From Zygnema cylindricum (lineage: Eukaryota > Streptophyta > Zygnematophyceae > Zygnematales > Zygnemataceae), in contig JBBHKE010001871.1 of the NCBI GenBank assembly GCA_037447655.1, positions 142,916-206,915 of the forward strand: a stretch of DNA of 64,000 bases, read 5' to 3'. The translations under genes were made by a program, and so were the position numbers. The notes under the pieces are model-generated. The model made no database searches. It was not told where the DNA came from and saw nothing but the letters and a program-made list of their open reading frames with translations. Below are positions 3,301 through 51,000 of the stretch, in pieces. Numbering within the stretch: position 1 is the first letter of the stretch; every line of letters starts with the position of its first letter.

Positions 3301-4946
3301 ACCTTTCCACCATTGGGTTTCTCCGGGCCCTCCCACACAAACTTTACATTTCCACTCTTTATTCTCCTCATCCTCTAACTCATTTCGAGTATAATCATTG
3401 AGCTCTCGAAAAAAATCTTGAACGATTTTCGAGTGTACAAAGGCGTTTTTCCCGTCTCCTCCTCCCGCGACAACACTCGAAGAATCCAAATCAAAATCGT
3501 CCTCCGAATCGTATATCAACGGATCGTCCTCCTCCCCTCCATCCACACTATTTACGGTGTCCTCAAAATCAATATCATTTTCTTCCAATTCTCGATTATT
3601 CTCGTCGAAAGAACCGTCGTCTTCCGTAGCCGAACCCTCGCGGATTCGAGTCACACTTCTCCCTCCTCTACCTCCTCTACCTCCTCTTCCCTCTCCTCCC
3701 TCTCCTTCCTCTCCTCCTAACTCCTTTGAAACTACCTCTCCCACCCATTTCTCCGTCCTTACCACCACATCCCAAACCCCGGGAGTATCTAAAGCCGATC
3801 CCTCCTCTATTATCGACTCTCCATTCAAATACTCGGTCGATTGTTGATAAGAAACCACACTTTTTTCTTCCCAACCTCCTCTCCCTCCCCACCCTCCGAC
3901 TCTCCCTCTCCCTCTACCCCCTCCCCAGGGCTTTAAAAGAGGGAAATCTCCTCCTCCTCCTCCTCCTCCTTCTGAATTTTCCGCATACTTAGGTTCCCAA
4001 TTCTTTCCTCCTCTCGGAGTCGGGAGAGAATCGTCACTCTCTTCACTGCTCTCAGAATCTCTCTCTCTCTCCCCCTCCCTCTCCTTCTCTCCCTCCTCAG
4101 ATTTCTTTCTCCAGCTTCCCTCTGAAGATCCTCTCCCTCCACTCCCTACTTTTCCACTCCCATCTTTCCCTTTCCCTTTTTTCCCCTCTGTCCAAGCTCT
4201 CCCACTCGGAGTAGAAGAAGAAGGGAGAGAAGGAGGCATTCCTCTCCCTCTCCCCCCTTTATTAGTCCCTCTCCCTCCTCCCCCATTCAAAACCCCGTCT
4301 CCAATTCCTCTCCCTCTACCCCCCCAGGCTCCCGACACTGGAGGAGCCGGAAATTTAGGAGGTATTTGTACCCCAAAATCTTGAAAATTTGAATTATACA
4401 AAGGGGGAATTCCCATCCCTGGTTGCAAATTATTAGGAGGGTTTCCAGAAAAAGACGAAACTCCGGGCGTAGAAAAATTTTGGCTGCCCGGAAAATTCGG
4501 ATTCGCCGAAAAATTTTGATTCGGGGGGAAATTATTTTGGTTTTGGGGAAAAACATTTTGGTTTGGGGGAAAATTATTTTGATTTGGGGAAAAGAATTGA
4601 GGAATGTTGGGAGAAAAATTAGAAATCTCGGGGGAAATTGAAATATTTTGATTACAAAATTGAGGATTGTTTGGGTTATTGGGGTACAAATAGGGTGGAT
4701 TTTGAGGGAGAGAAGGTACCAAAGCAGGGGGAGGAGGAGGAGGGAGAGAAGTTACTCCTAGACCTCCTCCTTCTCCTCCCCAATCGCCCGAAACTCCTCT
4801 CCCTCTCCCTCCTCTACCTCCTCGCCCTCCTCCTCCTCCTCCTCCTCCTCCTCCTCCCCATCCGTTATCTCCTCCTTCTGTTCCCCCCCATCCTCCTCCT
4901 CCTCCTCCTCTCCCTCCTCCTCCTCCTCTCCCTCCTCCTCCTCCCC

Positions 4947-4977
<31 letters not shown>

Positions 4978-6073
4978 ATCTTTCTCTCCTCCTTCTGCTC
5001 CTCCCCCTCCTCCTTCCCCTCCTCCTCCTCCTCCCCATCCATTATCTCCTCTCTCTCCCCCTGCCCACCCTCCTACCCCGGCTCTTCCCAATGCATCTTC
5101 GCCTCTCCCCCCTCTCCCTCCTCCTCCTCCTCTCTCTCTCTTTCCCACAACTGCCCACCCTGCTACCACCTCTCCTCCCCCTCCTCCTCCCCTTCTTCCC
5201 TCCTCTTCCCTCCACCCACTTATCACCCCCAATCCATTCTTTATTGGAACCTTCCCTGGGGGCCATGTCCTGGGGTCCTCCGGATCCACCCCCTCATACT
5301 CCCCTCTCTCTCTACCCCCCCCTCCCATTCCGAGACCCATCTCCTCTCCCTCCTCCTCCCCATTTTCCCCCTCCTCCTCCCCCTCCTCCTCCTCCTCCTC
5401 CTCCTCCTCTCTCTCCTCTCTCTCCCCTCCCATAATTAAAACCTCCGGAAAATGCAGGCATCACACTATTATCCCCTCTCTCCCCCCCTCCCCCTCCTCC
5501 TCCTCCCCCTCCTCCTCCTCCCCCTCCTCCTCCTCCTCCTCCTACCACTACTCTTCCCCCCCACCCAGACCCAGAACTCTCCCCTCCCCCTCCCCCTCCC
5601 CCTCCCCCTCCTCCTCCCCCTCCTCCTCCCTCTCCCCCTCCCTCTCCCTCCCCACTCTCTCCCTGAGTCAACCACTTCGGCTCGAAGTCACTCAAATCCT
5701 CCTCCTTCCCTTCCCTCCCCCCCCTCCCCTCCCTCCTCTCCACCTCTCTCTCTCCCTCCCTCTCCTCCTCCTCCTCCCCCTCCTCCGACTCCACCACACT
5801 CCCCCAGGAGGTGTACGGCCTCTTGGCCTCCATGGCCGCCTTCACACGTGTGGCGCCAAACCCGGAGGACAATCCGGGGAGAGAGGGGCGGGGGGGAGGG
5901 AGAGAGGGGCCGGAGGGGGGGAGGGAAGGGGAGGGGGAGGGGGAGGAGAGGCGGGAGCGAGAGGGTTTGGAGGAGAGGGAGGGGGGAGGAGAGGGGAAAG
6001 GGGAAGGGGAAGGGGAAGGGGAAGGGCGAGGGAGGGAGGGATTTTTTTTCTTGGGTTTGGATTTGGACGCCAT
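305..6073 (-). CDS. SGS3: SGS3-like RNA-silencing protein, 3' end outside window
   Basis: SGS3 binds dsRNA and works with RDR6 to make secondary siRNAs in cytoplasmic bodies (family knowledge). I assemble exons 3055-6073, 2306-2350, 1608-1854 and 305-549. All have GT-AG borders, and the phases agree (0, 0, 1). The ATG at 6073 opens a basic Pro/Ser-rich N-terminus. A huge Gly/Glu-rich region and an acidic stretch follow. The zf-XS finger reads WKCKVC with downstream HH and EHREF (about 3225-3350). The XS domain begins VVWPPTVMVVNT and continues after two introns with NQGHRGMSILIFE and GRNAW. Exon 4 is a charged coiled coil (ELNEMRRRVSEIRKKHDEE). A donor at 304 leads off the left edge, so the C-terminal coiled coil is missing. 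Exon 1 needs one frameshift between about 5312 and 5433, inside a GGA repeat. This may be slippage or an assembly error. Typical SGS3 proteins are near 600 residues; exon 1 alone gives about 1000. Confidence 0.85.
960..1560 (-). repeat. Degenerate copies of SGS3 exon 3 end within intron 3
   Basis: Minus-strand intron sequence between exons 3 and 4 holds decayed relatives of the end of exon 3. The clearest (1420-1540) reads DGNRLLHGFLQLLEDIENVN, against DGKRLLHGWLATLEDMENFN in the real exon, followed by a stop and a GTGGGT donor-like site. Shorter relatives lie near 1130-1170 (MDDFNLHLKG then GT), and more weakly near 1270 and 965. Spacing is about 145-190 bp. I infer tandem duplication of the exon 3/intron 3 border followed by decay. 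Confidence 0.6.
1868..2127. repeat. AT-rich minisatellite in SGS3 intron 2
   Basis: About fourteen imperfect copies of a 19-bp unit, TTTTAATGTTTTATCATGT, fill most of the 5' flank of exon 3 inside the intron between exons 2 and 3. Some units are shortened or carry CGTG in place of CATG. Confidence 0.9.
2195..2240. repeat. GGGAGA microsatellite
   Basis: A run of GGGAGA/GGAGAG units on the plus strand lies inside SGS3 intron 2. It is one of several purine-rich simple repeats of the locus and has no coding role that I can see. Confidence 0.8.
4700..5660 (-). repeat. GGA trinucleotide tracts coding poly-Gly in SGS3 exon 1
   Basis: The minus strand is dominated by GGA repeats read as Gly (or as Glu or Arg in the other frames). 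The tracts at 4790-5050, 5340-5420 and 5470-5660 are the longest. Because all three purine frames stay open, an indel here shifts frame without making a stop. This explains the overlap of two open frames at 5312-5433. Confidence 0.9.
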
Positions 6074-6430
6074 GGAGAGAGGAAGGAGAGGGAGGGAGAG
6101 AGGGGGGAGGAGAGGGGGAGGGAGGGAGGGAGAGAAATTCGGTGGAAAAGGGGAAGAGGATAAGAGAAAAAGAGTGAGACGAAGAGAGAGAGAGAGAGAA
6201 AGAAGGAGAAAGAAAAAATCAAGAAAGGACGGGAGAGAAATGAAGAGAGATAGAAAAAAGAAACAGAAAAATAGGGAGAGAGCGAGAGAGAAAAAGAGAG
6301 AGCGAGAGAGAGAGAAAGAGAAAGAGAGAGACAAAATTTAGGAAAAGGACAAAGTACAGTGACGTAAAGAGAAGCAAAAAAGGGATAAAAAAAAGAGACA
6401 GAGAGAGAGATAGAGAGATGAGTGAGAAGT
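6074..6430 (-). promoter_or_regulatory. Purine/pyrimidine-biased SGS3 5' leader
   Basis: Upstream of the SGS3 ATG the minus strand is a CT-rich stretch with long CTCTCT and TTTC runs. Plant 5' UTRs and core promoters often hold such pyrimidine patches. No TATA box can be assigned with confidence. An open minus frame continuing to 6334 is low-complexity and is not taken as coding. Confidence 0.4.
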
Positions 6431-6519
6431 GAATGAAGTGACAGTGAAGCTGAAAGGAGTAAGACTGGGATCTCTTGTACGGAACTTACATAACCGTCCG
6501 TACAAGCAGTTCTCACACT

Positions 6520-7045
6520 ATCATATCGTATTGAAAGTTTCGACTTTTGAAGAGCATACAAATAGAACAATTGAATGATAAAAAACTAACAGTTAATTAA
6601 CTTTTAATTAATTACTAAGTAACCATTGATTATTTTCTTTTTTCTTATCGATCGAAAAAATGACCATTGAGGGTCCCCTCTATCTTCCATCCTTGAGCTT
6701 CCCTCCTCGAGCTCCACTTCCTACCTCGAAAGCCCTATTCATCGTGTGGTGCACCTCCGGCCCACAATATTATATCGAAAGTTTTAATTTTAGAAGCGGA
6801 TAGGAAAATTTTAGAAGCGGAAAATAACGATAAAAAACAAATCAAACAAATTAATGAGTTTTCTATTAATTACTACATAACCATTTATTTATTATTTCTT
6901 TCTTTCTTAAATCTAGTAATTTCCCTAGTTAATCTCCCCTCCTTGTCGCCATCCTCCACTTCCTACCTCTAAGGCCTATATGCGGTGGACCTCTAGCGGA
7001 GTGCCGAACCTCTCATGTTTATGGGGCACCTTGACCTTTCACCCC
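6520..7045. repeat. Diverged tandem duplication, non-coding
   Basis: Two copies of a roughly 250-bp segment follow each other. Each has ATCG..AAAGTTT..TTTTAGAAG, then TTAATTACTA, a TAACCATT motif, a T-rich run, and CTCCACTTCCTACCTC. The copies begin near 6527 and 6768 and are heavily diverged. No gene was recognised. Confidence 0.55.
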
Positions 7046-22353: not shown

Positions 22354-22881
22354 AAAATTTGATTGATTACGTACGGTTGGTATGCCTCTGTACAGTTAGT
22401 AGTAAGTTGTAGCGTATATTTGTAGGACTTAGTCATTTTTAGACTAAAGGGAACTTTTGGACAGAAACTGTTTTTCAGCTCTTTTTTGGGAATTTCATCT
22501 GGGAATTGCTCTCACTTCTATTGGCAAATTTATCTGATATTTTGCATGTGTGTTCCTCCTTGTATTGGCAATATTATGGCATATTTTCAGACCTATTGTG
22601 CGTCTGATTTGCTTGTTGCTTCATTGTGAAGTTGGTCGGTTTTATCAAAGTTATGGCAGGCTGTTTTTCCGAAACTTTGACTGGGTAATGCGGGAATTCT
22701 GGTTGGTATATTTATATGAAAATTTGTGGGAACACTAATTGGCCTAGAAAATATCTGTTTAAGAAGTTTCAGCTTGTTTTGGTAATTCTGTAGAATTCTG
22801 AGTGGAATCAAAGTAGGCTGTTTTGGGGTAGTCTGTGGTGCTTCCGAGGCTACATTCATGGCTGAAAATGCTTCAAACCAA
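22354..22881 (+). mobile_element. LTR-C fragment, 3' half
   Basis: The sequence from GATTGATTACGTACGG to ATGGCTGAAAATGCTTC matches the inverse of 28900-29390 in the nested insertion. It includes AGGACTTAGTCATTTTTAGA and the internal start codon near the LTR end (MAENASNQ). It ends at a junction with an LTR-B fragment. Confidence 0.75.
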
Positions 22882-23235
22882 CATGTACCTTTTTGTACGA
22901 CACAGTATTTTTATTGGTGCCGTACTTTAGTAGATAGAGTTTTAGAGAGAGATAGGACTTAGGAAAATTTGGTAGATTGGACCCTCTCTCCCAGAGAGCT
23001 TATGTACAAAAGGTCAACTTTGACCCTCCATAACTTACTGTTTAGGGGAGCAAATTCAGAGATTCTTTTTGCTATCGACTCAAGGGAGTCTTCCCTTCAC
23101 AAGGATTAAGGTGGTTAGAGTTTTTGTTTGCCACGGTGGCAATAATTCTTGCTGAAACACAGAGGGGTCAAGGTTATCCTAAAGGTTTCGTGTGAGCTGC
23201 TTACTCTGAGGACCTCTGGAGGTCTCAGAGTTGCA
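22882..23235 (+). mobile_element. LTR-B fragment, 3' third, 5' LTR of truncated element
   Basis: The segment runs from TGTACCTTTTTGTACGAC to GGAGGTCTCAGAGTTGCA at 23235. It matches the last third of the LTR-B copies at 31300 and 37200, and is followed by a primer-binding-site relic and gag. Confidence 0.85.
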
Positions 23236-23250
23236 GGTTACGGGGCTACC
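23236..23250 (+). promoter_or_regulatory. Mutated primer-binding site
   Basis: GGTTACGGGGCTACC aligns to the GGTTATGGGCCCACC site with three changes, one of which turns the internal ATG into ACG. The element has thus lost both full primer pairing and the shared gag start. Confidence 0.75.
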
Positions 23251-24430
23251 CTTTAGGATGTCCATCTTTAATGGAAATGGCTTCATATACCGGGAAAGTA
23301 TGATGACACGAGCTATATGTGACACAAACTATACGGTTTTGGGGAATAGTGAGTGGACGGGTGAGGCGTCCATCCAGGCTTAGGATTCCTCCAAGTTTTA
23401 AAAGAAGCAGATTCACCAGAGATGGAGATCCATCTCCAACAGAGAAGACAAAGGAAGGGGAGGTGGTGGACAAAAAAAAGGAGAAAGAGTCAGTCACACC
23501 AATAGCAACCCGTTTGGCATTTATGTCACCTTTTCCGAGGAACGAGGAGAATGATACTGATACGTGGGACTACAACAATATGGCGGCAAAGCACTTCATC
23601 CTCTACCATTTTCCTCAAGGGCTTGCATCTTCTCATTTGCAGGTAGAGAGGGCATCTGATCTTTGGGTGGCTCTCATAGAGATGTACCTAAGTGGTACGA
23701 TTCAGCAACATCTGTTGGCTGATTAGAAAATTAATGCATATGTATACAAAGGGGGGAAGATGTTAGATTTTTGTAATGAGATCGCAACACTTTTCATGAA
23801 GCTAGAGAGTGCTGGACAGGTGGAAACCGAAAAGATGAAGTTTAATTGTTTGCTGATGAAGTTACCAAATGAGTTCGAGAACATAGTGAACAGTGTGCAT
23901 GACTTGCTAGACTCAAGATGGATATGGAATTCAGTGGTAGGGATGATTCTCGTTCAGGAGAACACGATCGAGATCGAAAGGGGAGGTCAGAGTGGGAAAG
24001 CTTTGGTAGTTGGAACCGATTAGGAAGAACAATGATTCTAGGAAACCGGTCAGAAATTATGGAAAAAGGGGGCAAAAAAATCAGACCGAGGAGTTTGGAC
24101 CAAGGGCTCCCAAGGGTTTATGTCAATTTTGTAAGAAACCAAGGCAATACATGGCGGAGTGCACTAAGCTAACCGAACTTCGGTTAAAGGAGGGGCAGAT
24201 CAGTGGACCTCCAAGAGGAAAGATAAAGGCTCTTGTGACTCAGGTACACGAAGAGGAATACGAGGACGAGGACGGTGAGCTCTTGCTGGATGAGGAATTG
24301 GAGGCAAAGAATGAGGTTGAAATTCCTCGAAAGCAGAAATGTGCTTTTGGCGGGCGGCGAAGACCTTCGAGGAGGATTTTGCCCGGGCAATGTAAATCCC
24401 TCCCAGTTATTGATAAGGACAGAGAAATAT
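23240..24430 (+). pseudogene. gag: Copia gag of LTR-B element, frameshifted
   Basis: The reading begins TGLPFRMSIFNGNGFIYRES and shifts to GIVSGRVRRPSRLRIPPSF. It then reads TDTWDYNNMAAKHFILYHF, LDFCNEIATLFMKLESAGQ and LLMKLPNEFENIVNSVHDL. The knuckle reads CQFCKKPRQYMAEC, with Gln in place of the zinc-binding His. A stop lies at 23725. The element is cut near 24430 and no pol follows. Confidence 0.85.
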
Positions 24431-24837
24431 CGCGCGAAGCGCGGAATTTTTTTTTTTAGGAGTCTCCTCGGTGATTAGGTCAGATGGACAAAAAAAAAAA
24501 AAAAACAAAGTGTCCATACTTACAGCGTTCCCATATGTAAATGTTCCCAAATAGCGTCACGCGCGTCGCTTGAGAACATGTAAATCGCGTTCGTGACTCA
24601 AAATATCTACAAAATTCAACAAACGTTCATACTTTAAGCACTACACCGTGAATCGTTATTAGACTTATGTACTCTATATCGGCGCCCCAAAATTTTGACA
24701 TTGATACCTGAAATACAAGGACTGATTCTATTTTATCCGTGACGTTAATTACGGTTCTTGTGAATTAGCAGCAATGGAATTACCGTACCTATTTCATGAA
24801 TAGTGTGGTGTACGAAATGTGTTTGCTGGTACAAAAT
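24431..24837. other. Unassigned spacer with A-tract and repeat motif
   Basis: After the gag break there is a small GC hairpin (TCGCGCGAAGCGCGGA), a T-run and a run of 17 As after AGATGGAC. An ACACCGTGAATCG motif near 24648 is shared with 16420. No coding sequence was recognised. The A-tract might mark an old retroposed end. Confidence 0.4.
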
Positions 24838-38655: not shown

Positions 38656-38667
38656 GAAGACACATTG

Positions 38668-38682
38668 CCTATATAAAGGTGT
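38668..38682 (+). promoter_or_regulatory. Candidate TATA box upstream of OTU frame
   Basis: GCCTATATAAAGG is a good TATA match, about 500 bp before the OTU frame on the same strand. The spacing leaves room for a leader or a small intron (a TTTTTTTTAG..ATTTAAGGTAAGC pattern lies near 39150). Not proven. Confidence 0.35.
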
Positions 38683-39170
38683 CCTATAATTTATAAAGAG
38701 GGTTGCGCCATTGCAGGTGTCGCTGAAGTAGTTGACCTTTCGGGCATTTCAACGTTGTAGCTGTCGTTGAGGTTGTCGCCGTTTAGGGCACGCCATTTTG
38801 GGTGCACAGACAAACATAGTTTTGGCTTGTTTTTAGTTTTTTGCCTCGCGACCATTGGTCTATAATTTGGGTTATAGATTATCTTTTTTTGCCATTTTTT
38901 TTTTTTACTTTACGAATTGTCACTCTTTAATTCATTTGCGAATGCTTGAAATATTTAGTAAGTAGTTTTTTCATCTATTGAGTGATGTAGAGTGGTTTGT
39001 GTGAAGTTATTTTAAGTTTTTTTTATATTTGCTTTTTGTTTTAATTCTTAAATAAATGCTTTTAAAATTAAAGTGTTTTGCTGTTTTATTTGTTTATTAT
39101 TATTTTATTTTTATTATTATTCAAGTGTAAGCATTTTTTTTTTTAGAGTTCTATTTAAGGTAAGCTTATT

Positions 39171-39798
39171 ATGGCACGAATTCCTTTTTTTCGATTACAT
39201 GTTACATGGGATGGGAATTGTTTGTTTCGTGCTCTTTCCCTATTATTGTTTGGCTGTGAGTATAAATATTATTATGTAAAAAAGGTAATTATCAGTTATT
39301 TATTTTGTCAATGTGATGAACATGCTATTTTTACTAGCTGTGGACATGAAATTCAATTTGTAGACTTTAATCATTATCAAACCTATATATCTGTTGATGA
39401 AGTTTGGGGCAATTGTGGTGAAGTTGGTGTTGTTGCAGTAGTTTTTGATTTTGTTTTTAATATTTGGAATGCTAATTTTTCTAGAGCATTGTCTACTCTT
39501 AGTGAAAGATAAGTTGATGATGGTCTTTCTTTATACTTAACTGGTGTTCATTATGATGTTTTAATGGATGTTGTTCCATCTAACTTCAGTAGACAAGTTG
39601 ATCAACTATGTCTATCTGATTGTGAAAAAACAATGGATAGGGACAATATGCATATGTTGTTTAATAATGAATGTATTAAAAGGGTTCAAATTATATCTGA
39701 CAGTTTTGATTCTTTTGAGAATGATGGTAAAGATGATTATAATTTTGATTTAATAAGATTGAATGGCAATCGTTCTTTTAATGTATTATCAATATAAA
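39171..39798 (+). pseudogene. OTU-domain cysteine protease of the Helitron-like element
   Basis: The frame opens MARIPFFRLHVTWDGNCLFR. DGNC holds the catalytic Cys, and VHYDVL at about 39546-39563 holds the catalytic His. One TAA at 39510 separates the two motifs in the same frame. An acidic tail follows (NDGKDDYNFDLIRLNGNRSF). After a shift the reading continues as KQDILFHKFHPKYSPLNFL to about 39890. OTU domains cleave ubiquitin chains. In helentrons they usually lie within the main protein; here the domain is on the opposite strand. Confidence 0.7.
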
Positions 39799-40490
39799 GC
39801 AAGATATTTTATTTCATAAGTTTCACCCTAAATACTCACCACTAAATTTTTTGTTTCGTCTTGAAGAATTAAAGCAGTATAGCTTTTGACAACTCCTCTT
39901 GGATTCTCCCAAAATGTTATGTCCGTTTTCTAGGAAAGAATACATTGGATATCAAAAGGGTATTAATTGAGAAAAAAAATGGTGCAAAAATTAGAATAAA
40001 GTGTTCTGATTTGGGTTTATTAAGTAATTATTCTTATTTTTCTTAGAAATTTTATTAGTAAATACTTAAAAGATGTTGTTCAAAGTAAAATAAAAAGATA
40101 AGTGCATCACCCGTTCCATTTTCTTCATTTCACTCAAAAATGGAGGGATTCGATAACTTTCAAAATTGATTAGTTCCTCTATTAGTTCCACTTTTGTTTT
40201 AACGCCCAATTTTAAATGATGAATCGTTCCAAATTTTGTGTATTTGCAAAAAAAAAAAAAAAATACATGTTTGTTATAAAACAAACAAAAATACAAGAAA
40301 AAAAATTATATGATATATTTGAAAATAAAATTGCTCTTCATTAATAAACATATATGAAAAATAATTTTGAATTGGTGTTTTAACGCACGATTTATTTTTT
40401 CATTATGGTAAGTGTTTTTAGATTTCACCTCTGTATTTCAAATGACATGTATGTTTAAATTATCCTATTAAACTTTGAAATAAACAGTGC

Positions 40491-41294
40491 TTACTTCTTT
40501 TTATCATCACGATATTTACCAAGTAAAATGTTCATGAGTTTGTAGACTTTTGTCTCTTTGAAATTTGCACGTTTCTCTAAAACCGAATCAAAATCGCCTT
40601 GATTTGAAGCCCAACACTTTATGCTAGCATGGGCTCCACTGTCATCATACATTGTAATTTGAAGCAAAAAAGAACTTCGTCCTATTTGACGACCGAACCC
40701 AACATGATGACATTTTAATATGACATAAAAGTGACGTGGAGCTGTTGAAAAATCGTTTACTTTGATGAAAATTGGGTTGATATCCTGGATAAAAGGGAAG
40801 AATAATGAAATGAGATAATAAAATTAGGAGTAAACAGAAGCATGAAAGAAAAATCATATTTGTTAATATTTAATAAGTAACTAAAACACACCTCAACATT
40901 GGTTTTTTTTAAATACGGACTGTTGTCGTATCAATAGGTGTGTTTTTTAAGAGTTCTTGTGTACATTCAAATTTGATCCTTGTGAAAACATAGAAAAAAA
41001 AACAATAATTATACTCATGTATTACTTTAAATCAAAGAATATAGTGAAAACATTGAATAAATTATAAATGATGTAATGATATTTTACCTTTTCAAATTGA
41101 GAAGTAATCTTCAACAATGGAGTCGTTGTTGAATTTGGCAAATTAATATAGGAAGACGAACCATGAGAAGGAATTGGAATATTAGAAGGAGAATCGTTAA
41201 GGTAAGTTGAAGGACGTAGTGGTTCCATGGAAAATGAAGATGAAACCAAAAATTCATTCACTACATTTTGAACGTTTAAATCCAAGTTATCCAT
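40491..41294 (-). pseudogene. RPA-like OB-fold gene, spliced, with a likely frameshift
   Basis: I read three exons: 41088-41294 (MDNLDLNVQNVVNEF to TSQFEK, donor GTAAAA), 40892-40978 (IKFECTQELLKNTPID to FKKTNVE, donor GTGTGT) and 40491-40784 (DINPIFIKVNDFSTAPRHFY to a stop after KYRDDKKK). The last exon looks like an OB fold: FLLQITMYDDSGAHASIKCW, then FKETKVYKLMNILLGKY. The exon 2 frame shifts once in an A-run, and its acceptor phase does not fit exon 1. RPA proteins bind ssDNA, and separate RPA-like genes are common passengers of Helitrons. Confidence 0.6.
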
Positions 41295-41469
41295 CTCGTT
41301 TTCTTTTACTATTTGCAAAAAAAAAAAACAATAATTTGTAAAATCACAAAAAAATGCATATGAAATCTCCAAAAATCAAAGATTTAAATTAAATTGATGA
41401 CTATTAGTACTAAAGAAAACCGCATTAATGTAAACTAATGAATAGCGGTTTGTAATCACTCCAGTAAGC

Positions 41470-42817
41470 TTTTTACCCAAAACAAGAAATTTGATTTTTT
41501 TATTTTTTTATTTATGTTAGTCCATAAATGATCAATATTCTGTAATAAGTTGTTCAAACCGATAACTATGTAAATTTGTTGAAAAATTAGACTTTATTTT
41601 TTTTTAAATTTCATTTGTTATATCAAAGTTAAAATCCCCAATAATTACAATGTTTTCTTTAAAGAATAGCTTCAAACATCTAAGCATAATTTACAACAAA
41701 TTAGGTAATTTGAATGAATTAGGGGATCGATATACAACAAACACATATAATGATTCATCTTTATCTCCTACACAACATTTTAAAAAAACCTATTGCAAAA
41801 AAATAGATGAAAACTTATCTATAATTTCAATTAGTTTTTTAAAATAAATGACAATTTGCTTGATGAGATCTCAATTGTAAGATTGTAGAAGGAGCATTAT
41901 TAGTGTGAAATTTATAACCTAAATCATCAAAACAAGGAGCCTCAACATCATTCATCAACCAAGTTTCAACAAATACCAATAAATCACATTCTAAAAAATT
42001 TACAGAAGATTTAATTTCTTGTACATTTTTGATTAAAGATCTTACATTTTGATACATAATTTGAAAATTAGTGTTATTTTTCTTTGGTAAAGGTAATGGG
42101 TCTAAAACTAGTTGTTTACTTGAACGTAACCTTAACATTTCATCTTTTACATCATTGGACACATTTATATGATTTTCATTTAAATTATCAATAAACAAAT
42201 TAATCAAACTAGGAAAACGACTTAATCCCACATAATGAACACCATGATCCTTGTGTCCATCCAAATTAACAACACTTTCAGATAATGTTCGTCCTTGGGA
42301 TCTATGAACTGTTATAGCAGTACTAGGGCTTAAAGGAAATTGTTTTCTTTCAATTTCGATAATTTTTTCTGAAACATTAAAAGATTTACTAACTCGAGAA
42401 ATAGGGGTCCATCCTTTAGAAATAAATTCTTTGAAATTAGGATTTTTTACCAAATTACGTGTTTTATAACCAATCCGATCGTTTTCAAATTAAACCCAAA
42501 TCATTTTTACATCATTATCTATACTTGTAAAATGACAAATTTCCCGATCAGGACCGTTTGTAAGCCCATCATTAACATCAATGTTGAAACAAACTTCTAC
42601 TTTCATTCCTTTTTTCAATCTAAATTGTTTTTTTAATTGTTACTTCAGTTTTTTTTTTCTGTAAGATGCATCGGACAAAACAATTAAAGCCTCAGTTCCA
42701 TCTCTTTTTTTAGATTTATCTATAGCATCAATTATATATCCATTAGATTTAATTGAATCATAAACACATTCATTATGTTTATCAACTAAAAAATTTAATC
42801 GAAATAAATGGGCATCT
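41470..42817 (-). pseudogene. Helicase C-terminus fused to APE-like endonuclease
   Basis: From 42817 downward come helicase motifs (LFRLNFLVDKHNECVYDSI, FNIDVNDGLTNGPDREI, TAITVHRSQGRTLSESVV, HYVGLSR). A linker (LPLPKKNNT) and an endonuclease-type start follow (QIMYQNVRSLIKNVQEI, DLLVFVETWL). After a stop at 41839 it continues in pieces: SLYVFVVYRSPNSFKLPN, then NIVIIGDFNFDI near 41640. GDFN is the APE-type catalytic signature. Stops sit near 42493, 41839 and in the final part. Helicase and endonuclease thus belong to one reading direction, as in helentrons. Confidence 0.7.
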
Positions 42818-44170
42818 CTATTGAAGGTTTTTTTTTTTTTTTGATATTTCATGTTTTTTTAGTTCTTTTATATCATCTATAGTATGATTACCTTCGTTTA
42901 GTCTATTTAGTAATTCCGCAAAAAAATTCTCATCTTTTTGTCTCATTATTTTAGTTAATTCAAACAATTCAAAATTTGATTTCCATAAATTCATTTTTAA
43001 CCCTGAGTAAAGAACACGAGGATCCTCAAAAATAAAACCATCACCAACAGGTCTTAATTGAAAAAGATCACCACAAGTAATAACGTGCAACCCCCCAAAA
43101 GGAACACTATTTTTACCCGTTAGTTCCCTCAAACGAAAATCAATTGAATGAAACATCTTACAACCAACCATAGACACTTCATCAATCATAACAACTTTAA
43201 CACTCCCTAATTTAGAAATGAAGGTGTTTAATTTATCAAACGTTAGACTTAAAGTAGACATAGATTCTCGAGGCGGAATATGTAAACCACTGTGACAAGT
43301 ATTACCATTAATTTGAAAAGCAGCAGTTCCTGTAGGGGCTAATCGTAATACTGAGGGCTTATCAAAATCTTCATTATTTTTTTTTATAAAAATTCTTACA
43401 ATAGCCTCATACAGTGTGTTCAACAATAATGATTTACCAACACCAGCTCCACCAGTTAAAAACACACGTAATGGTTCACAAGATTTCAGAATTTTTCGTA
43501 TAACATGATAACAAAATAGTCTTTGCTTAGTATTCAATGAGCAAGCCATTCTTTTAAATTCATTATCAGAACGCATTTTATTGTTAGTAACAATCCGAGG
43601 AATTGAAACAGATGGATTTATTCCAAGGTGCAAACCAATATCAAATTTATCACGCAAATTTTCTTCATTGACTTGATTATCATTCAGTACTTCATCATCT
43701 CTTTTGTCAACTTTAAGATCACTTAAAACTTCTTGTTCTAAATTACTCCAATCACCTTTTTTAGCCTCAAATGCAAACTTAATGGTCTCTATGTCATCCA
43801 AATACAATTCATGCATAAGTTCAACAAAGTTTCGATCAAGCATTGTGTTTTCATCACGCCATGGTACATACAACGTAAGTTCACATCGTTTAAAATCATC
43901 TTCTGCATCTTTATTAAAACGTTTATAATATCGCACTATATATGGTTTTTTTTTTAATTTATAATATTTTTTCCCTTTAGACAAATCAGGACCAAAAGAA
44001 TTATCATTCACATATTCTATAATTTTATCCTCGACAAGTTCATCAACAATATCTTCAGCATCATATTTTTTTATCAAATTAGTCGAAAAAATTTCAACAT
44101 ACAAAGCAACAAAACGGACTAAACAAACATCTTCTAAACAATTTGGAAGTAGCACATATCGTTCTAACAA
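42818..44170 (-). CDS. PIF1-type helicase domain of the Helitron-like element
   Basis: A 450-codon open frame carries LPNCLEDVCLVRFVALY and KKPYIVRYYKRF (pre-helicase features of Helitron proteins). It then has Walker A GGAGVGKS (residues 240-247), APTGTAAFQINGNTCHSG, Walker B MIDEVSMV (about 328-335), CGDLFQLRPVG (366-376) and ELTKIMRQ. PIF1-family enzymes unwind DNA 5' to 3' with ATP. The frame is lost in a T-run (plus 42831-42842) where the protein should continue at 42852. The frame itself shows no internal stop, so decay has been uneven. Confidence 0.85.
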   Translation of the reverse strand: MLERYVLLPNCLEDVCLVRFVALYVEIFSTNLIKKYDAEDIVDELVEDKIIEYVNDNSFGPDLSKGKKYYKLKKKPYIVRYYKRFNKDAEDDFKRCELTLYVPWRDENTMLDRNFVELMHELYLDDIETIKFAFEAKKGDWSNLEQEVLSDLKVDKRDDEVLNDNQVNEENLRDKFDIGLHLGINPSVSIPRIVTNNKMRSDNEFKRMACSLNTKQRLFCYHVIRKILKSCEPLRVFLTGGAGVGKSLLLNTLYEAIVRIFIKKNNEDFDKPSVLRLAPTGTAAFQINGNTCHSGLHIPPRESMSTLSLTFDKLNTFISKLGSVKVVMIDEVSMVGCKMFHSIDFRLRELTGKNSVPFGGLHVITCGDLFQLRPVGDGFIFEDPRVLYSGLKMNLWKSNFELFELTKIMRQKDENFFAELLNRLNEGNHTIDDIKELKKHEISKKKKNLQ

Positions 44171-44229
44171 AGCATTTAGTTTAGCAACATTGGTATCATT
44201 TTTTATCCATTTGTCGTAATTCGAAAAAC

Positions 44230-46070
44230 GATTTTATCAAACACACCCTATCTTCAAGTATATTTGTATTTATGTAAACAATACCTGTTGAACTTTTTTA
44301 ACAGTAAACCTAACAAAATGTAACACGTTTCTCGTGTTGACACTTCATGTGCAGTAAACCTAACAAAATGTAACACGCATCTTGTGTTGACACTTCATGT
44401 GCATAAATAAAACTACTTCCAATTAGTTTAAATTTTTCTTTTATATTTAGATTCATATTTCGAGCTTCATTACAAGTTTTTTCCATTATGTTACTCATCC
44501 CTCGTTGCCTTTTCGTCATATAACTAACAACATACTTAGGACACGCAAAGTGGTCTTAACAAAATTGTATATCCATATTAGTTTGTCATAATGATAAAGC
44601 TTTAATACTATAAGCATTTATTTTGCATTCATCATGATTACGTTTAATAAATATAGTAGTTTTATGTATAGTACAACGAATAACATCCAAATACTCTTTC
44701 TCATTTAAATTAAATTTAATTAGCATATCGTCAAAAAATATAAACAATCAAAAGTAACACCAAAAGTCTCTAACCAATCATGGATTTTCTTCTATATCTC
44801 TTTTGCTTTACCTAAATCAATTATATCGTTTTCCTGTATAAGATGTAAGAATAATGTTCTAGACATTGGAGGAATACGGTAACCAAAACGACAAGGATAA
44901 TTTGTTTTGTTTTTTCTCAAGCAATAATATTTTGATGTTTATGCATTTGGACACTTATTAAACACTTATTAACACCATCTTTTGAACAAGTGATATTTAA
45001 ATCAATAAAAACAATAATTTTAGCTTTATCTAATACACCAAAAGAGTAAAATAAAATTTTAAATGTATTAACATAACAAATTAAATGTGCATAAAAAGAT
45101 CCTAGATTTTGGAACTCATTAATAGTAAACTAATCAGTTAGACCCCCTTTAACTTCAAAACAATATTTAATAAGCAAATTGAAAAATAATTGAATTATAT
45201 ACCAATATTAACTAGAACAAGTTACAGGATCTAAACGAACTAACCGCCATATTTTATCAAAACTTAAATTTTTAGCCTCCTGCAAAGAGATTATTCTATC
45301 ATCAATAATTTTTGACAAAATTTGATGTAATTCATACCATTTTGTATCTGCCATAGAGGATGACATAGAGAACGTAGGCCGACCAATTTTTCTAAATATT
45401 GAAGAAACATCACGTTTAGTTGTTGTCCAATATTGAGGTATTCCCCTAATTTTATTAAATTCTAAAAAAAAAAATTTTTTGAAAAAATTCTAACTTTTTT
45501 CTTCATTAAGCAAATGACCCAACATTGGTGTTATTTTCATTTAAATGTTTAATATAACTTTTTTTTAATTTTATATATATAACGTTACGAATTTGACCGA
45601 GTTGATACCTACGAAGTTTAAAAAAAAAAAATTGAAATATAAAAAGCTACACGACGATCTACATTATGTAGTTCCTTCTTGCATACATCTCTATATGTAG
45701 TATTTTTTCGAAATCTATCGTTCAATGAAATTCTAACTTCTCCACAAAAAATAGTCGGATAACTTAGCTCTTCTGAATACTTATTTTGAAAAATACTTTT
45801 TGGTGTTTGACTCTCGCCAGTTGCTACTTTTATTATAGTATTTGGGGAATAAAAATCCTCCTAACACCTACATTTAGCATATTGTTTATATCATAATTAG
45901 CATCTATATCTTTTACAATATTTCATTTATCCTCTTCATTATCCATTGTAATATCTTCAATTGAGTCATTGTTAATTTCACAATTTTTTTCCTCATCAAC
46001 TAAATCAAACTCATTATGGCGATTACGAACAAAATTCATAATATCCTCACTTATAGTTATGCTATATTTT
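44230..46070 (-). pseudogene. Rep (HUH nickase) region of the Helitron-like element
   Basis: Readable stretches in order are MNFVRNRHNEFDLVDEE; TPKSIFQNKYSEELSYPTIF and YRDVCKKELHNVDRRVAF; KLRRYQLGQIRNVIYIKL; IPQYWTTTKRDVSSIFRKIG; MADTKWYELHQIL and DRIISLQEAKNLSFDKIWRL with LDPVTCS; INEFQNLGSFYAHLICYV; and CPKYVVSYMTKRQRGMS. YAHL stands where the HUH pair (HIHM-like) is expected, so the first His is lost. YVVSYMTK fits the two-Tyr Rep motif. Several in-frame stops and a 50-bp duplication disrupt it. Confidence 0.75.
44304..44403. repeat. 50-bp tandem duplication within Rep
   Basis: GTAAACCTAACAAAATGTAA through CACTTCATGTGCA occurs at 44304-44353 and 44354-44403 with three or four differences. 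The length is not a multiple of three, so it shifts the Rep frame after AHEVSTQDACYILLGLL. Confidence 0.95.
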
Positions 46071-46100
46071 TATATGAATACCCATTTTTACACAAATACT

Positions 46101-46684
46101 CAAGCGCAATAAAAACTTTCTCTGGAAAAATGGTTAGCCTCCACATGGAACTACGAGCTGACATTCGTCATTAAAACATAACATAATTGTTTGTAGTGAA
46201 TTACAAATCTTAGGAAGACTTACCAAAGTTTTTGAAAATTCCATTGGAACATTAATGTAAAAAAGACAAAATGCCACAGTGCACATCGGAAGATACCAAG
46301 GACCTCCTCGTAGCAACAGCAAGATTCACACCACAAGGACAAGTAAAGGTTGCGCTTTATTACTCGGGAGAAGATTACAATATCCAGTGCTCGCTGCAAA
46401 GGTCAATCAAAGAGTGTCTTACAGACTAGGCATACTTCACTTTTTATACTAACTAGCTTGTAGTCAGCCTAGTACTGTACAACTCTACACGTGGACCGTC
46501 AATTTGACATGTCGCATGTCATTGTGGGACATCATAGACGTACAGCCTTGCAACCGTTGTTGTACAACATGCCTTTGCGTTTGTCTCTCCTGCCCTTCCG
46601 TCATGAATGGAAATAAAATTCATGGCGCCTTCGAGATTTTCACCTTAGCAGATTTTTCACTTGTTCATGAAACAGCACTACAGC
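46101..46684. other. Unassigned sequence between Helitron-like element and GT92 gene
   Basis: No gene motif was found. The right border of the Helitron-like element and any further GT92 exons should lie here, but neither can be fixed from the sequence. Confidence 0.35.
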
Positions 46685-47359
46685 CTAGAGACCCTTGCGA
46701 AAAAAAATGTAAAAGACGCAAGCGGACAAAAACGAACAGCCCTGTACTTCCACAAATTCGGCTTCGACAAATGGTTTCACATTTTCTCGAAAGCTTACAT
46801 ATTCGGTAGTATTCTGAAAGGAGTTATCGTAAATGTAGATTTTTGATAACCCGTGTACTAAAAAATACAACATCCATTCTTGAATGTAGGGAGAATTTCC
46901 TTGTTGTAAAGCACACATCGCTACTTTGGGTAACGAGACATTTGTCGGACATGCTTGATACAGGTCTAAACGTTCTTTGATAACTTTTGCAGATTGAATT
47001 TGGATTTTATGTTGATGGTTTTTATGATACAAGTACTTATTTTGAACGTTTAACATTTGGACTTGAAGTTTGATAAGGTCTCTTATGCCGTCCTCGATTT
47101 CCATGGATTCCATTGCATTTAAGATGGGATTTACACAATCCAATGGTTTTTCGAGTTCCACCGAATGTAGGGAACGATACGAGATATCGAGTGACTGACT
47201 TCGTGGATGTCGAAAAAATCCAACACTGTATGTGAAAACAAAAAGTAAACTCAAGAGAAGAAGAATCCCAACTATAATTCGTGGAAGCATTGAAAGTAAA
47301 AAAGACTTTCTTCCCCAAGAAAGTGGATTCACAGAATACAGTAAGTCTGGATTACGTCC
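46685..47359 (-). CDS. GT92-like glycosyltransferase, N-terminal exon
   Basis: An acceptor (TTTGTTTCAG) precedes the exon start at 47359. A type II membrane anchor (MLPRIIVGILLLLSLLFVF) follows near 47290, then a lumenal stem. The GT92 (DUF23) signature is PKVAMCALQQGNSPYIQEW, then LVHGLSKIYIYDNSFQNT. A donor-like GTACAG at 46747 would end the exon after VEAEFVE; otherwise it stops at 46685. The catalytic C-terminal half (the DxD region) is not seen in the next 600 bp. The gene may be split by the Helitron-like element or have a long intron. GT92 enzymes are Golgi galactosyltransferase-like proteins. Confidence 0.7.
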   Translation of the reverse strand, partial: GRNPDLLYSVNPLSWGRKSFLLSMLPRIIVGILLLLSLLFVFTYSVGFFRHPRSQSLDISYRSLHSVELEKPLDCVNPILNAMESMEIEDGIRDLIKLQVQMLNVQNKYLYHKNHQHKIQIQSAKVIKERLDLYQACPTNVSLPKVAMCALQQGNSPYIQEWMLYFLVHGLSKIYIYDNSFQNTTEYVSFRENVKPFVEAEFVEVQGCSFLSACVFYIFFRKGL

Positions 47360-47419
47360 CTGAAACAAAAAAAGAAAAAGAAAATGGAATTAAAAATAAG
47401 ATTTTGTAAAAACAAAAGT

Positions 47420-47432
<13 letters not shown>

Positions 47433-47460
<28 letters not shown>
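47433..47460. repeat. GA microsatellite
   Basis: A run of about 14 GA units on the plus strand lies in the upstream intron or leader of the GT92-like gene. Confidence 0.9.
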
Positions 47461-47464
<4 letters not shown>

Positions 47465-47928
47465 GAAAACTGAATCAACACCACGAATCGTTATAAACGT
47501 TAACTCTTGAGAATAAGAGCATAAAAAACTCCCTGCAGTAGACGCCCTCTTTTTCCTTCTTATTGATTATTAAGTGCTGTTTGAATTTTGATTAATTTTC
47601 ATATTAATACATAAACTATCTTGCCTAAATCGAAATATACTAGTACACCGTCTATGGTTATTAGCGCCAAGGAAGTTTATATTTGTTGTTATTAATTATA
47701 ATTCAGTGCGGAATGACCTGGTTGGTTTAAAACCGTTTAATGAATTAGAGTGAAAAAATCATTAGTGATATTGACACTATGTTAGGTTGAAGGGGTGAAA
47801 TTTAGGTTCACTAGTATAGTGGCATTCGCGCAATATTGATACACGTGTACTATCATTGAACCATGTATCTGAATTTATTATCACATTATGTTTTAATGTT
47901 TAATACATGGCCGAGTAATGTACCATCT

Positions 47929-48055
47929 GGAGGCTATGCTATCTACATGTCTGAAAACCAACTCCTTTGTTTATTAATTGAAATTTTTTTTATTTATTAA
48001 TTTTTGTTCAGGACATGACCAAGTTCAATGTGGAGGCTATGCTATCTACATGTCT
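47929..48055. repeat. 24-bp direct repeat at an exon border
   Basis: GGAGGCTATGCTATCTACAT plus GTCT occurs at 47929-47952 and again at 48032-48055, inside the first exon of the unrecognised gene. The copies are identical and 103 bp apart. Confidence 0.9.
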
Positions 48056-51000
48056 CCCTTTTCTTCCAGAAGACCTAAAAAATCAACCTTTGATTACATA
48101 CAATGAGAATTCAGCATTTGAAGGTGATGGTTTTCTTATGTCCAAAATCCAATATTCTTCTGCCACATTATTTCAAATTGGAACCGATAACAGCTTTACT
48201 CTAGATCAAGACGTACCTGGAGTGGAAGAATTTAGCAGGGAAATTCATTGGAAAAACGTTTATCTTGGTCGACGAAGTTTAGATATAGGATGGATTGCAT
48301 GTGAATGGGATGTTAAGGATTCAAATCTCTCAAAGTTACTCAAAAAAACCGGATTTTTCTTTCCAGAATATGATTTGGTAATAATTTGCGCTTTTCAACC
48401 AGCATTTTGACAATCATGTCTGTGAATATGTGGCTTTTTTCAAATATTTTACCAGTCTGTTTGGTGAAAATGTTTTCCAAGCATATTCTTGCTTGTCGAA
48501 TGCACAAGGTGTATAGGTGGATTTTTTTTTTCTTTTTTTTTTTTACATTATCAAAGTTTACCCTCGTGTTGTGGATAATACATGAATAATGACAAACGTT
48601 TGAGTAACCATATGTACTGTTACTCACAAAACTGAATGACTACCCACAAACAAGGGTAAGATCTGCTAGTGTAGTTCCCTGTGCACGCCAGACTTTCCAG
48701 AAAATTGTCAATGTGTTTGTAATATGATTGGCATGTTTTACAGTTGTACAAAGGAAAAAAGACCAATTGCAAAAGTAATGCATATGTTTCCGAAATTACA
48801 TCGTAAACTGCTGTTATCTTTAATAATAATTCGGTCCCGTGTTTCTGTGTTTTTTGCCCTCTGTACACAAAACAGTGTTAGAATATATATATATATATAT
48901 ATATGATTTTTTTCCTTGAAGCTGATTCTTCTTGCAGTTCACAATCATCACCGGAAACATAATTATCAATAATAAAACAGAGCTCATACTGCGTATTTGC
49001 AATTTCGGTGACCTATTTTAGAGCCAAAATTTTGTTCTTTGTTCTTTGATATTTTATGTTATTTGAAGGAAATTTGATGCAGTTTTTTCCAAAAAACGTC
49101 TAAATAAAATGTGTGAAGCATCTATTGGGCCTGATTCCAAAAATGTGTAATAATGATCAAAATGGATTGTCTTTAAAAGGGAAAAAGAGGTCCTCAGTCT
49201 TGGCAATTGGTAGATGTCCCGTCTTTCGAATGTAGTTTTGATTGATTTTTTTGGTGTTTTGGATTTCTGAATTATTTATCACAGACGGGGTGGAAACATA
49301 ATAATACATTGACGTCCCTTGGACTGATGTATCGGATACCGAGAGGGGATGGTTCATTTGAACCTTATTTTGAGGTTTGCCAAGTAGCATGTCGTAACTT
49401 CTCCAAAATTTGTGATTTACGGTTCAATCTACGTTATACCCCGGTAAGTTGAGTAGTCAATTGCTTGATAAAAAAGTGATGCTGCCTTGGCTCTTAAAGT
49501 CCGAGAAGTGTAGGATTTCTATAAACTGGTATTGTTTGAAAATGTACTGTTTGATAAATGGAATAAATCAAAGTGTATCAGAGTGGGGAAGGCGAATTTG
49601 AAAACCTGGACGAGGTTATGGTTCAAGTCGATTTCTTCGGAAGAAAACTAGGATTGGCATGTGTCTCTTCTCTCTTTATTTTAAAGTCATGAACTAGTGT
49701 TACTGTATGCTTTTGATGGGAAATTTGTCTTGTAAAATCTCCAAATCAAGTCCAAGTCATGGCATTTTCAGAGTCTTTTCTTGATGTTATTCTCAACTAT
49801 ATGTTTGTGGCAGTTATCCTGTTGAAAACAATCCCCCTTTTTTCCTTTTTTCCACGGTTGTGGAGTAGGAATGAAAGTTGTTGGGAGGTCTTTACATGTA
49901 TTGAAATGAGTGGGTTGTGATTTAAGTACATCTGTAAGATTTTTTTATTTTTTTTTTCTCCATAAATGAATTGCATTTTGTTTCTCTTTTTTGTGAATCT
50001 ATCCAGTTTCAAGGGAATATAAGTTCTTCCGTCCGTTCTCCTGATTGGACTGGACAACTAACTCTCCAAGACCATGGTGGAACAAACGTATCTTTCAGGT
50101 GATTTTCACAATTTTTTGTTGCGTACAGTCTTAGGACGAGTACGGTGGATGACGCTTTTCTATGTTTTGGTCGGAAATCGAAATAAACATATGCAGCTCC
50201 TAATCAATGTCAATATATTCCTAATTGGAGCTTAGAAGTGTTTGAATTATTGATTTTGTTTTTTCTTTTAACATTTGATAATGGAGTTATTGACTGCATA
50301 TTGCCACGTTTCATTTTCATTCATTTGTAGAAGGTGATTGATTCCTATCGAAGCTTGTGTTTTGTTTACATGTATCCTTGAGCGATTCTAATGCTTTTTT
50401 TTTTTTTTAAGGAGAGCCTGAATTTCGGTCTTTTTGTATTTCATTTCTTCTAATATTCTTTAGGAACACGTTTCACATGTGATTTCAAAATGAGTCCTGA
50501 AAGTTTTTTCTTTTTTTCTTTTCATAATTTTGTCTATATTTCGGGTGCTTTGGGCTTTTTTTCTTCAAAACCTTCTCTTTGACGAATTGCAGGTTTGAAA
50601 GCAAATCTCGACTATTAGAATATATTTTTACAAGGGACAAGGAAGTCCAATCTCGTAAGTTTTGGAGTTTTCTTTCAAATAACATGTAGGAAAATGTTCG
50701 AAGCACAAAAAGCCTTATCACATAGACATATTTTGTTAAATGGATACGGGAGCATATGTTGACTTCAGGATAAAGAGAGGAGAGAAAGGTTTAAAAAATA
50801 ATCCGTCAAAGCAAGGAATTTGAAAAACTTGATGAAGTTTGTTGTTTGTTTCTCTAGATGTTCATTTTTGCCATAGTAAATTTGGTAGGAGGCGTTTTTT
50901 CTTTTCAGATTGCCCTTCCCAAACAAATGGACGAAAGACAAACCAGTTCCATAAACTTTTAGGATGGCGATACCCTAAAGATGTTCCAACAGCTAGGGAT

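What the first reader, a model, noticed from the sequence alone, without database searches (positions are those of the whole stretch)
38660..46100. Helentron-type Rep-helicase-endonuclease element in a plant genome
One block carries a Rep two-Tyr motif, a PIF1-type helicase, an APE-like endonuclease with GDFN, a spliced RPA-like OB-fold gene and an OTU protease. Canonical plant Helitrons have RepHel plus RPA but no endonuclease. Rep-Hel-EN is known mainly from animals and some other lineages. In this copia-rich plant-type window it may be a poorly described plant lineage or a horizontal arrival.
Basis: partly seen in the sequence, partly recalled or inferred. Interest (0 to 1): 0.8.

Follow-up and report, generated by a model that had tools for sequence, protein, structure and literature searches.

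The report
Dead helentron transposon in streptophyte alga
This is a broken copy of a rolling-circle jumping gene of a type known mainly from animals, here part of a small, old family living in the genome of a green plant relative, most likely a streptophyte alga.

Summary
The block is a real, decayed helentron (Rep-helicase-endonuclease rolling-circle transposon). On the minus strand lie Rep (45489-44217; two-Tyr kept, HUH mutated), a PIF1 helicase (ORF 44233-42821) and a fused AP-like endonuclease (GDFN 41645-41619). An RPA-like exon follows (weak support). An OTU block sits on the plus strand, inverted relative to the best-preserved copy; the break is at 46255, not 46100. It is not a lone contaminant: six loci on six contigs carry the family, 84-90% alike outside mosaic tracts (one pair 93%), all six broken, and two of these contigs share a copia family with an LHC-bearing contig. 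Copy C395 has OTU-DUF6570-Rep-Hel-EN pieces in order on one strand, as in known helentrons. The host is green-lineage; Zygnema cf. cylindricum fits by inference. The helicase tree puts it inside helentrons, away from host PIF1 and host Helitrons, on a long branch. So: a new member of a known kind in a host group where helentrons were doubted. Recent horizontal arrival is unsupported, not excluded. Termini and target site were not found. Runs of 531-807 bp without mismatch between copies suggest gene conversion or assembly mixing.

The parts
38669..38679 (+). TATA-like site before the OTU leader; roughly the left limit of homology to other copies
   Evidence: read directly; homology to C395 begins about here
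38688..39170 (+). 5' leader of the OTU gene, with a probable intron (GTAAGT ... TTTTAG)
   Evidence: aligned with C395 and C1701; splice sites by eye
39171..39512 (+). OTU-like cysteine protease ORF (DGNC kept), displaced and inverted relative to Rep
   Evidence: PF02338 1.3e-5; sequence; orientation by comparison with C395
39513..39797 (+). continuation of the OTU region, after a stop codon
   Evidence: its first part aligns within the C395 frame 118666-118187
39744..39823 (.). short piece of the element's downstream region; about 1 kb is missing between it and the RPA region
   Evidence: matches C1701 63127-63048, whereas 39830 matches 62068; C1208 shows the same gap
40491..40823 (-). RPA-like OB-fold exon (DBD-A-like), weak support
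   Evidence: ORF; conserved in C1780, C1208, C1701, C202; REPA_OB_2 E 0.022 for the C1780 exon, below cut-off
41088..41294 (-). first exon of the RPA-like gene (MDNLDLNV...), approximate limits
   Evidence: conserved frame in other copies; start and splice site by eye
41440..42070 (-). AP-like endonuclease domain: FVETWL 41973-41956, VYRSPN 41735-41718, GDFN 41645-41619; frameshifted; limits approximate
   Evidence: C395 equivalent matches Exo_endo_phos_2 8.5e-5, below cut-off; SDH motif seen in C1208, C202 and C1701 frames
42071..42822 (-). C-terminal part of the PIF1 helicase fused to the endonuclease, with two in-frame stops
   Evidence: HRSQGRTL 42306-42283, YVGLSR 42234-42217
42821..44233 (-). 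PIF1 helicase ORF, 471 aa; 42953-43484 is identical to C395 and 43454-44178 to C1701
   Evidence: PF05970 6.1e-28; tracts
44217..45489 (-). Rep (Helitron_like_N) remnant in several frames; HUH 45117-45082 mutated; two-Tyr motif 44534-44511 kept
   Evidence: PF14214 0.0021 on 45208-45489, below cut-off, and 1.9e-6 for 45079-45459
45490..46255 (-). N-terminal part of Rep with the end of the DUF6570 region; element broken off at 46255
   Evidence: three copies match to 46255 and then continue with shared sequence absent here; DUF6570 in C395

Best explanation
The block is a dead, rearranged copy of a helentron family resident in the nuclear genome of a streptophyte (probably Zygnema or a close relative). 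Inferred from the order of pieces in copy C395: intact ancestors encoded OTU-Rep-Hel-EN in one long gene, plus an RPA-like protein. Inferred from known helentrons: Rep nicks one strand through HUH and tyrosine, the helicase peels that strand off, RPA coats it, and the endonuclease may open a T-rich target. The role of OTU is unknown. Shown here: domain order, family membership by sequence, several genomic copies, decay. Not shown: termini, target site, activity.
For: Domains. C395 has nine open pieces in order on one strand: OTU 119058-118603, N-terminal region 118183-117365, DUF6570, Rep, PIF1, helicase end plus EN 113679-112558. Homology to Rep-Hel-EN proteins over 97-100% of the query in the better rows; an Oculina protein (P0184) has OTU, Helitron_like_N and PIF1 in one chain. 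Six loci with helicase DNA: C1404, C395, C202, C1701, C1208, C1780; DUF6570 matches also on C1299 and C1766. Starred helentron clade (97/92) apart from host PIF1 and host Helitrons. Host: 88 LHC matches, LHCII 94% identical to a EukProt protein. The window's copia recurs on C395 and on C286, there about 9 kb from an LHC exon.
Against: No terminal hairpins, subterminal repeats, T-T site or empty site found. No intact copy among the six. The window EN has no Pfam match; C395 EN and OTU are below cut-off. RPA weak. Identical tracts show that local sequence may be mixed between copies. The tree tool flags long branches and odd residue make-up of the window and C395 rows. The host species is inferred.
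Confidence: 0.88

Rival explanations
1. Recent horizontal arrival from an aquatic animal or its parasite.
Against: Identity is at most 37% where 90% or more of the query aligns, up to 40% over about 60%, up to 49% over part of the helicase. In the 1323-column tree window and C395 form a branch of length 1.23 outside a 72-row clade, and P0136 is not beside them; the tool had already warned that the P0136 join may be a long-branch effect. The six copies are all broken and mostly 84-90% alike.
Confidence: 0.12
2. Contaminant or misassembly joined to a plant contig.
For: GC 0.28 against 0.41; runs of 531-807 bp without mismatch between diverged copies show that something mixed sequences.
Against: Six loci on separate contigs with different flanks and breaks; C1404 and C395 share a copia family with the LHC contig C286; the copies are decayed.
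Confidence: 0.04
3. Host PIF1 gene or canonical Helitron next to an unrelated LINE endonuclease.
For: The host has canonical Helitrons with open RepHel frames and a PIF1 exon on C2406.
Against: The helicase's C-terminal part and EN are one frame in C395, as in animal helentrons; the tree separates the window from host PIF1 and host Helitrons.
Confidence: 0.01

Closest known systems
Helentrons (EN-bearing Helitrons, mainly of animals; Thomas et al. 2014, PMC4067079, passages and section 10 read)
   Same: Rep-Hel-EN fusion, OTU, RPA-like gene; DUF6570 (PF20209) N-terminus as in Oculina and Saccostrea proteins
   Different: Host is a streptophyte; at most 37% identity to the listed relatives where 90% or more of the query aligns; termini not found
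Helitron2, e.g. of the green alga Chlamydomonas (PMC3627910, passages read; its Helitron-5_SMo is Selaginella by my recollection of the code)
   Same: green-lineage hosts; helentrons group with Helitron2 (PMC5148889, passages)
   Different: Helitron2 is described as encoding Rep/Helicase with no endonuclease domain (PMC4067079, passage); here EN is fused
Canonical Helitron (Helitron1), also present in this genome (C1485, C1216)
   Same: Rep plus PIF1-type helicase
   Different: Rep motif FQKRGLPHAHLL and YLYKYVYKG, separate in the tree; no EN seen in the stretches fetched, which do not reach the element's ends

Membership tests
Helentron | Rep (HUH and two Tyr) fused to PIF1-type helicase | tested here: met
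   family level: C395 and C1701 keep SPHTH, PF14214 8.8e-20 in C1701, 3.3e-18 in C395; fusion inferred from consecutive pieces on one strand; in the window the HUH is mutated and the frames are broken
Helentron | AP-like endonuclease fused C-terminal to the helicase | tested here: met
   374-aa frame in C395 running from the helicase end to GDFN, Pfam matches below cut-off; SDH in other copies
Helentron | phylogenetic grouping with helentrons, not Helitron1 or PIF1 | tested here: met
   (97/92, 61 rows, long-branch warnings); one search has no Helitron1 or PIF1 rows
Helentron | accessory OTU | tested here: met
   PF02338 1.3e-5 in the window, above cut-off; 1.6e-4 in C395, just below cut-off
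Helentron | accessory RPA-like protein | tested here: inconclusive
   REPA_OB_2 0.022 and 0.0045, below cut-off; PDB searches negative; model failed
Helentron | subterminal inverted repeats, 3' hairpin, insertion in TT without duplication | tested here: inconclusive
   ends could not be fixed from the copies
Canonical Helitron (Helitron1) | no endonuclease; Helitron1-type Rep | tested here: not met
   EN fused to the helicase end in C395; tree
Host PIF1 gene | groups with eukaryotic PIF1 | tested here: not met
   the C2406 exon is short and long-branched

The most novel reading that the evidence does not exclude
EN-bearing helentrons were already in the green lineage long ago, so that the endonuclease fusion is not an animal-side invention, and this family is the decayed relict of a streptophyte lineage of its own.
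Probability: 0.25. Interest if true: 0.55.

Novelty: new member of a known kind. Interest (0 to 1): 0.4.

Why it matters
Thomas et al. 2014 (PMC4067079, section 10 read) did not identify helentrons in most plant genomes and could not rule out contamination for the few short hits. Here a family sits at six loci on separate contigs of a streptophyte genome, and two of these contigs share a copia family with a contig that carries an LHC gene. That makes the question of helentrons in the plant lineage testable across charophyte genomes, and lets old residence be told from recent transfer.

Tried and rejected
Structure prediction of the RPA-like exon (3-row alignment) gave pLDDT 42.8 and was not used for fold searches. 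PDB searches with the OB exon, the zinc-ribbon-like piece and a joined piece found no RPA (the best row, E 0.37, is a chance match). Pfam found nothing in two DBD-B-like pieces. Terminal structure: breakpoint alignments gave no common ends. Rfam and tRNA scans of the window were empty. A host marker search with PF00016 did not complete, nor the DNA search with the RPA region; the protein search with the EN piece was not sent again. Literature: helentron+plant (38 papers), Helitron2+endonuclease+plant (6), HELIANO+HLE2 (0), two of Helitron-like/helentron/bryophyte (8), HELIANO alone (17, 10 listed, most of them about other words), helentron with charophyte terms (536, 10 listed, helentron in none of the 10), RepHel with green-lineage terms (1,034, 15 listed), Helitron+OTU+endonuclease+plants+horizontal transfer+helicase (3). 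I saw no report of an EN-bearing helentron in a streptophyte in these listings or in the passages read; the library holds open-licence papers only, and supplementary files were not read.
Full report
What is there. Window 38660-46255 is an AT-rich block (GC 0.279 against 0.411). On the minus strand it carries remnants of Rep, an open 471-aa PIF1 helicase frame (PF05970 6.1e-28), the helicase end fused to an AP-like endonuclease, and, downstream, an RPA-like OB exon. On the plus strand at 39171-39512 there is an OTU protease (PF02338 1.3e-5). Motifs were placed by script: GGAGVGKS 43453-43430, DEVSMVG 43183-43163, HRSQGRTL 42306-42283, YVGLSR 42234-42217, FVETWL 41973-41956, GDFN 41645-41619, two-Tyr YVVSYMTK 44534-44511. 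The HUH motif (45117-45082) reads SFYAH, where C395 and C1701 read SPHTH. Stops and frameshifts interrupt Rep and the Hel-EN fusion, so this copy should be dead.

Other copies. The genome (352.8 Mb, 2689 contigs) holds matches to the helicase DNA at six loci: C1404 (window), C395, C202, C1701 (several pieces), C1208 and C1780; of 14 matches, one of 52-53 bases on C302 was not counted. One search gives the same six by protein, plus four weak rows on C2406, C1216, C1221 and C1485 that belong to host PIF1 or canonical Helitrons. The five other contigs are 60 to 495 kb long. One search finds DUF6570, an N-terminal helentron region, at 4 places: C395, C1701, C1299 and C1766; the last two were not examined. 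The tool warns that counts are lower bounds. None of the six loci has a whole open frame. C395 is best preserved: nine open pieces in order on one strand, OTU 119058-118603 (1.6e-4, just below cut-off), N-terminal region 118183-117365, DUF6570 (4.5e-10), Rep (3.3e-18), PIF1 (7.4e-30) and helicase end plus EN 113679-112558 (Exo_endo_phos_2 8.5e-5, below cut-off). In the window the OTU block lies inverted behind the RPA region, about 1 kb is missing at 39821, and the Rep side breaks off at 46255, where C395, C1701 and C1780 continue alike. I take the OTU displacement as a rearrangement of this copy. C1780 and C1701 are rearranged as well.

Kinship. A search with the joined window pieces found 289 proteins (only the 7988 candidates sharing most words were scored). 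Among the 120 listed, most cover 90% or more of the query at 30-37% identity; shorter alignments reach 40%. Every eukaryote named is an animal (Holothuria, Oculina, Nematostella, several bivalves, Rotaria, Lucilia, Diaphorina), and one row is a bacterial MAG. The helicase tree (61 of 61 rows, 246 of 247 columns) puts the window in a starred helentron clade (97/92), apart from host PIF1 (C2406 exon) and host canonical Helitrons; its nearest neighbour is the unnamed P0136 at 82/79, and the tool warns that this join and the place of the host PIF1 exon may be long-branch effects. The larger tree (88 rows assembled, 82 kept at 55% filled; 1323 of 1557 columns; quick method, no mixture model) puts window and C395 on a branch of length 1.23 outside a 72-row clade (SH-aLRT 99). 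There the chosen outgroup was not one side of any branch, and the window and C395 rows have odd residue make-up. I read this as a distinct, old lineage. The trees do not settle vertical or horizontal origin.

Host. The assembly has 88 LHC matches (150 of 160 candidates scored) with tandem arrays on C519, C2590 and C1116, and arrays of weaker matches on C610 and C1077 that I take for ELIPs (the ELIP label is mine). An LHCII frame (L054) is 94% identical to the unnamed EukProt protein P0252, 88% to Marchantia and Sphagnum rows, 79% to a Gonium row, and shares AILGTQ with P0252, while Mesotaenium P0306 has AILGSQ (that the Mesen1 label means Mesotaenium is recalled). The best single-stretch solved-structure matches are 8htu and 7xqp (that these are moss chains is recalled). 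The Zygnema preprint (PMC9915684, section 5 and passages read) reports for Z. cf. cylindricum SAG 698-1a a 360 Mb assembly, 73.3% repeats, 29.8% copia, and ELIP expansion in the Zygnema ancestor. That fits size, copia load (6061 first-look candidates, 40 scored) and ELIP-like arrays, but it is an inference; no 18S or rbcL was compared. The window's copia occurs at 89-90% identity on C395 and on C286, about 9 kb from an LHC exon there, which ties helentron-bearing contigs to the photosynthetic genome.

Mosaic tracts. Outside the tracts the copies are 84-90% identical for all pairs compared over more than 300 columns but one, C1701-C1780 at 93%. Yet window and C395 share runs of 633 and 531 bases without mismatch, window and C1701 724, C1701 and C1780 807, and two arms within C1701 270 and 777. 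The window's open helicase frame is largely made of two such tracts. Gene conversion, or mixing during hybrid assembly (described for SAG 698-1a as SPAdes, WENGAN and Platanus-allee, PMC9915684 passages), could both explain it. Reads would decide.

RPA. The exon is conserved in several copies, and further OB-like and zinc-ribbon-like pieces lie downstream in C1208, C1701 and C395 (by eye). Pfam gives only 0.022 and 0.0045 for REPA_OB_2, both below cut-off, and nothing for the window exon or the DBD-B-like pieces; PDB searches and the structure model gave nothing usable. I keep RPA as likely, not shown.

Mechanism. From established knowledge of HUH transposons: nicking by Rep, unwinding by the helicase, RPA on the single strand, and possible target nicking by the endonuclease. 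None of these steps was tested. Helentron OTU and RPA genes are described by Thomas et al. [quoted passage not shown] PMC5148889 (passages) places EN-bearing helentrons, often with OTU, in a distinct group.

Verdict. A new member of a known kind in an unexpected host lineage, old and apparently inactive. The finding is real; 'land plant' and 'horizontal arrival' are not shown.

Noticed in passing
window 41859-42492, 42953-43484, 43454-44178; C1701/C1780 equivalents of 44348-45171: Long runs without mismatch between helentron copies that are otherwise mostly 84-90% alike: gene conversion or assembly mixing.
   Followed up: partly
C202:14552-16831 and 22489-24757 (L038, L039): Direct repeats of about 2.28 kb, 92% alike, flank the C202 helentron fragment; no LTR-like ends were evident.
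   Followed up: partly
C1701:46000-75999 (L035-L037): Helentron pieces form a large inverted repeat beside a tandem array of about 6 kb.
   Followed up: no
C1485:451625-452248, C1216:58712-59332: Canonical Helitrons lying in open frames of 1471 and 1308 aa, possibly recently active.
   Followed up: no
C519, C2590, C1116; C610, C1077, C889: Large tandem arrays of LHC genes and of weaker, ELIP-like LHC-family genes.
   Followed up: partly
C1299:57064-57435, C1766:91432-91695: DUF6570 matches outside the six helentron loci, possibly more helentron fragments.
   Followed up: no
window 46688-48410: Open frames of a possible host gene, one with a weak glycosyltransferase match (PF13704 0.068), next to the break at 46255.
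   Followed up: no
window 2893-6585: Long low-complexity stretch with overlapping poly-Pro/Gly/Ser frames.
   Followed up: no
protein P0162: A helentron protein sits in a MAG named Sedimenticola sp., probably eukaryotic sequence in a bacterial bin.
   Followed up: no
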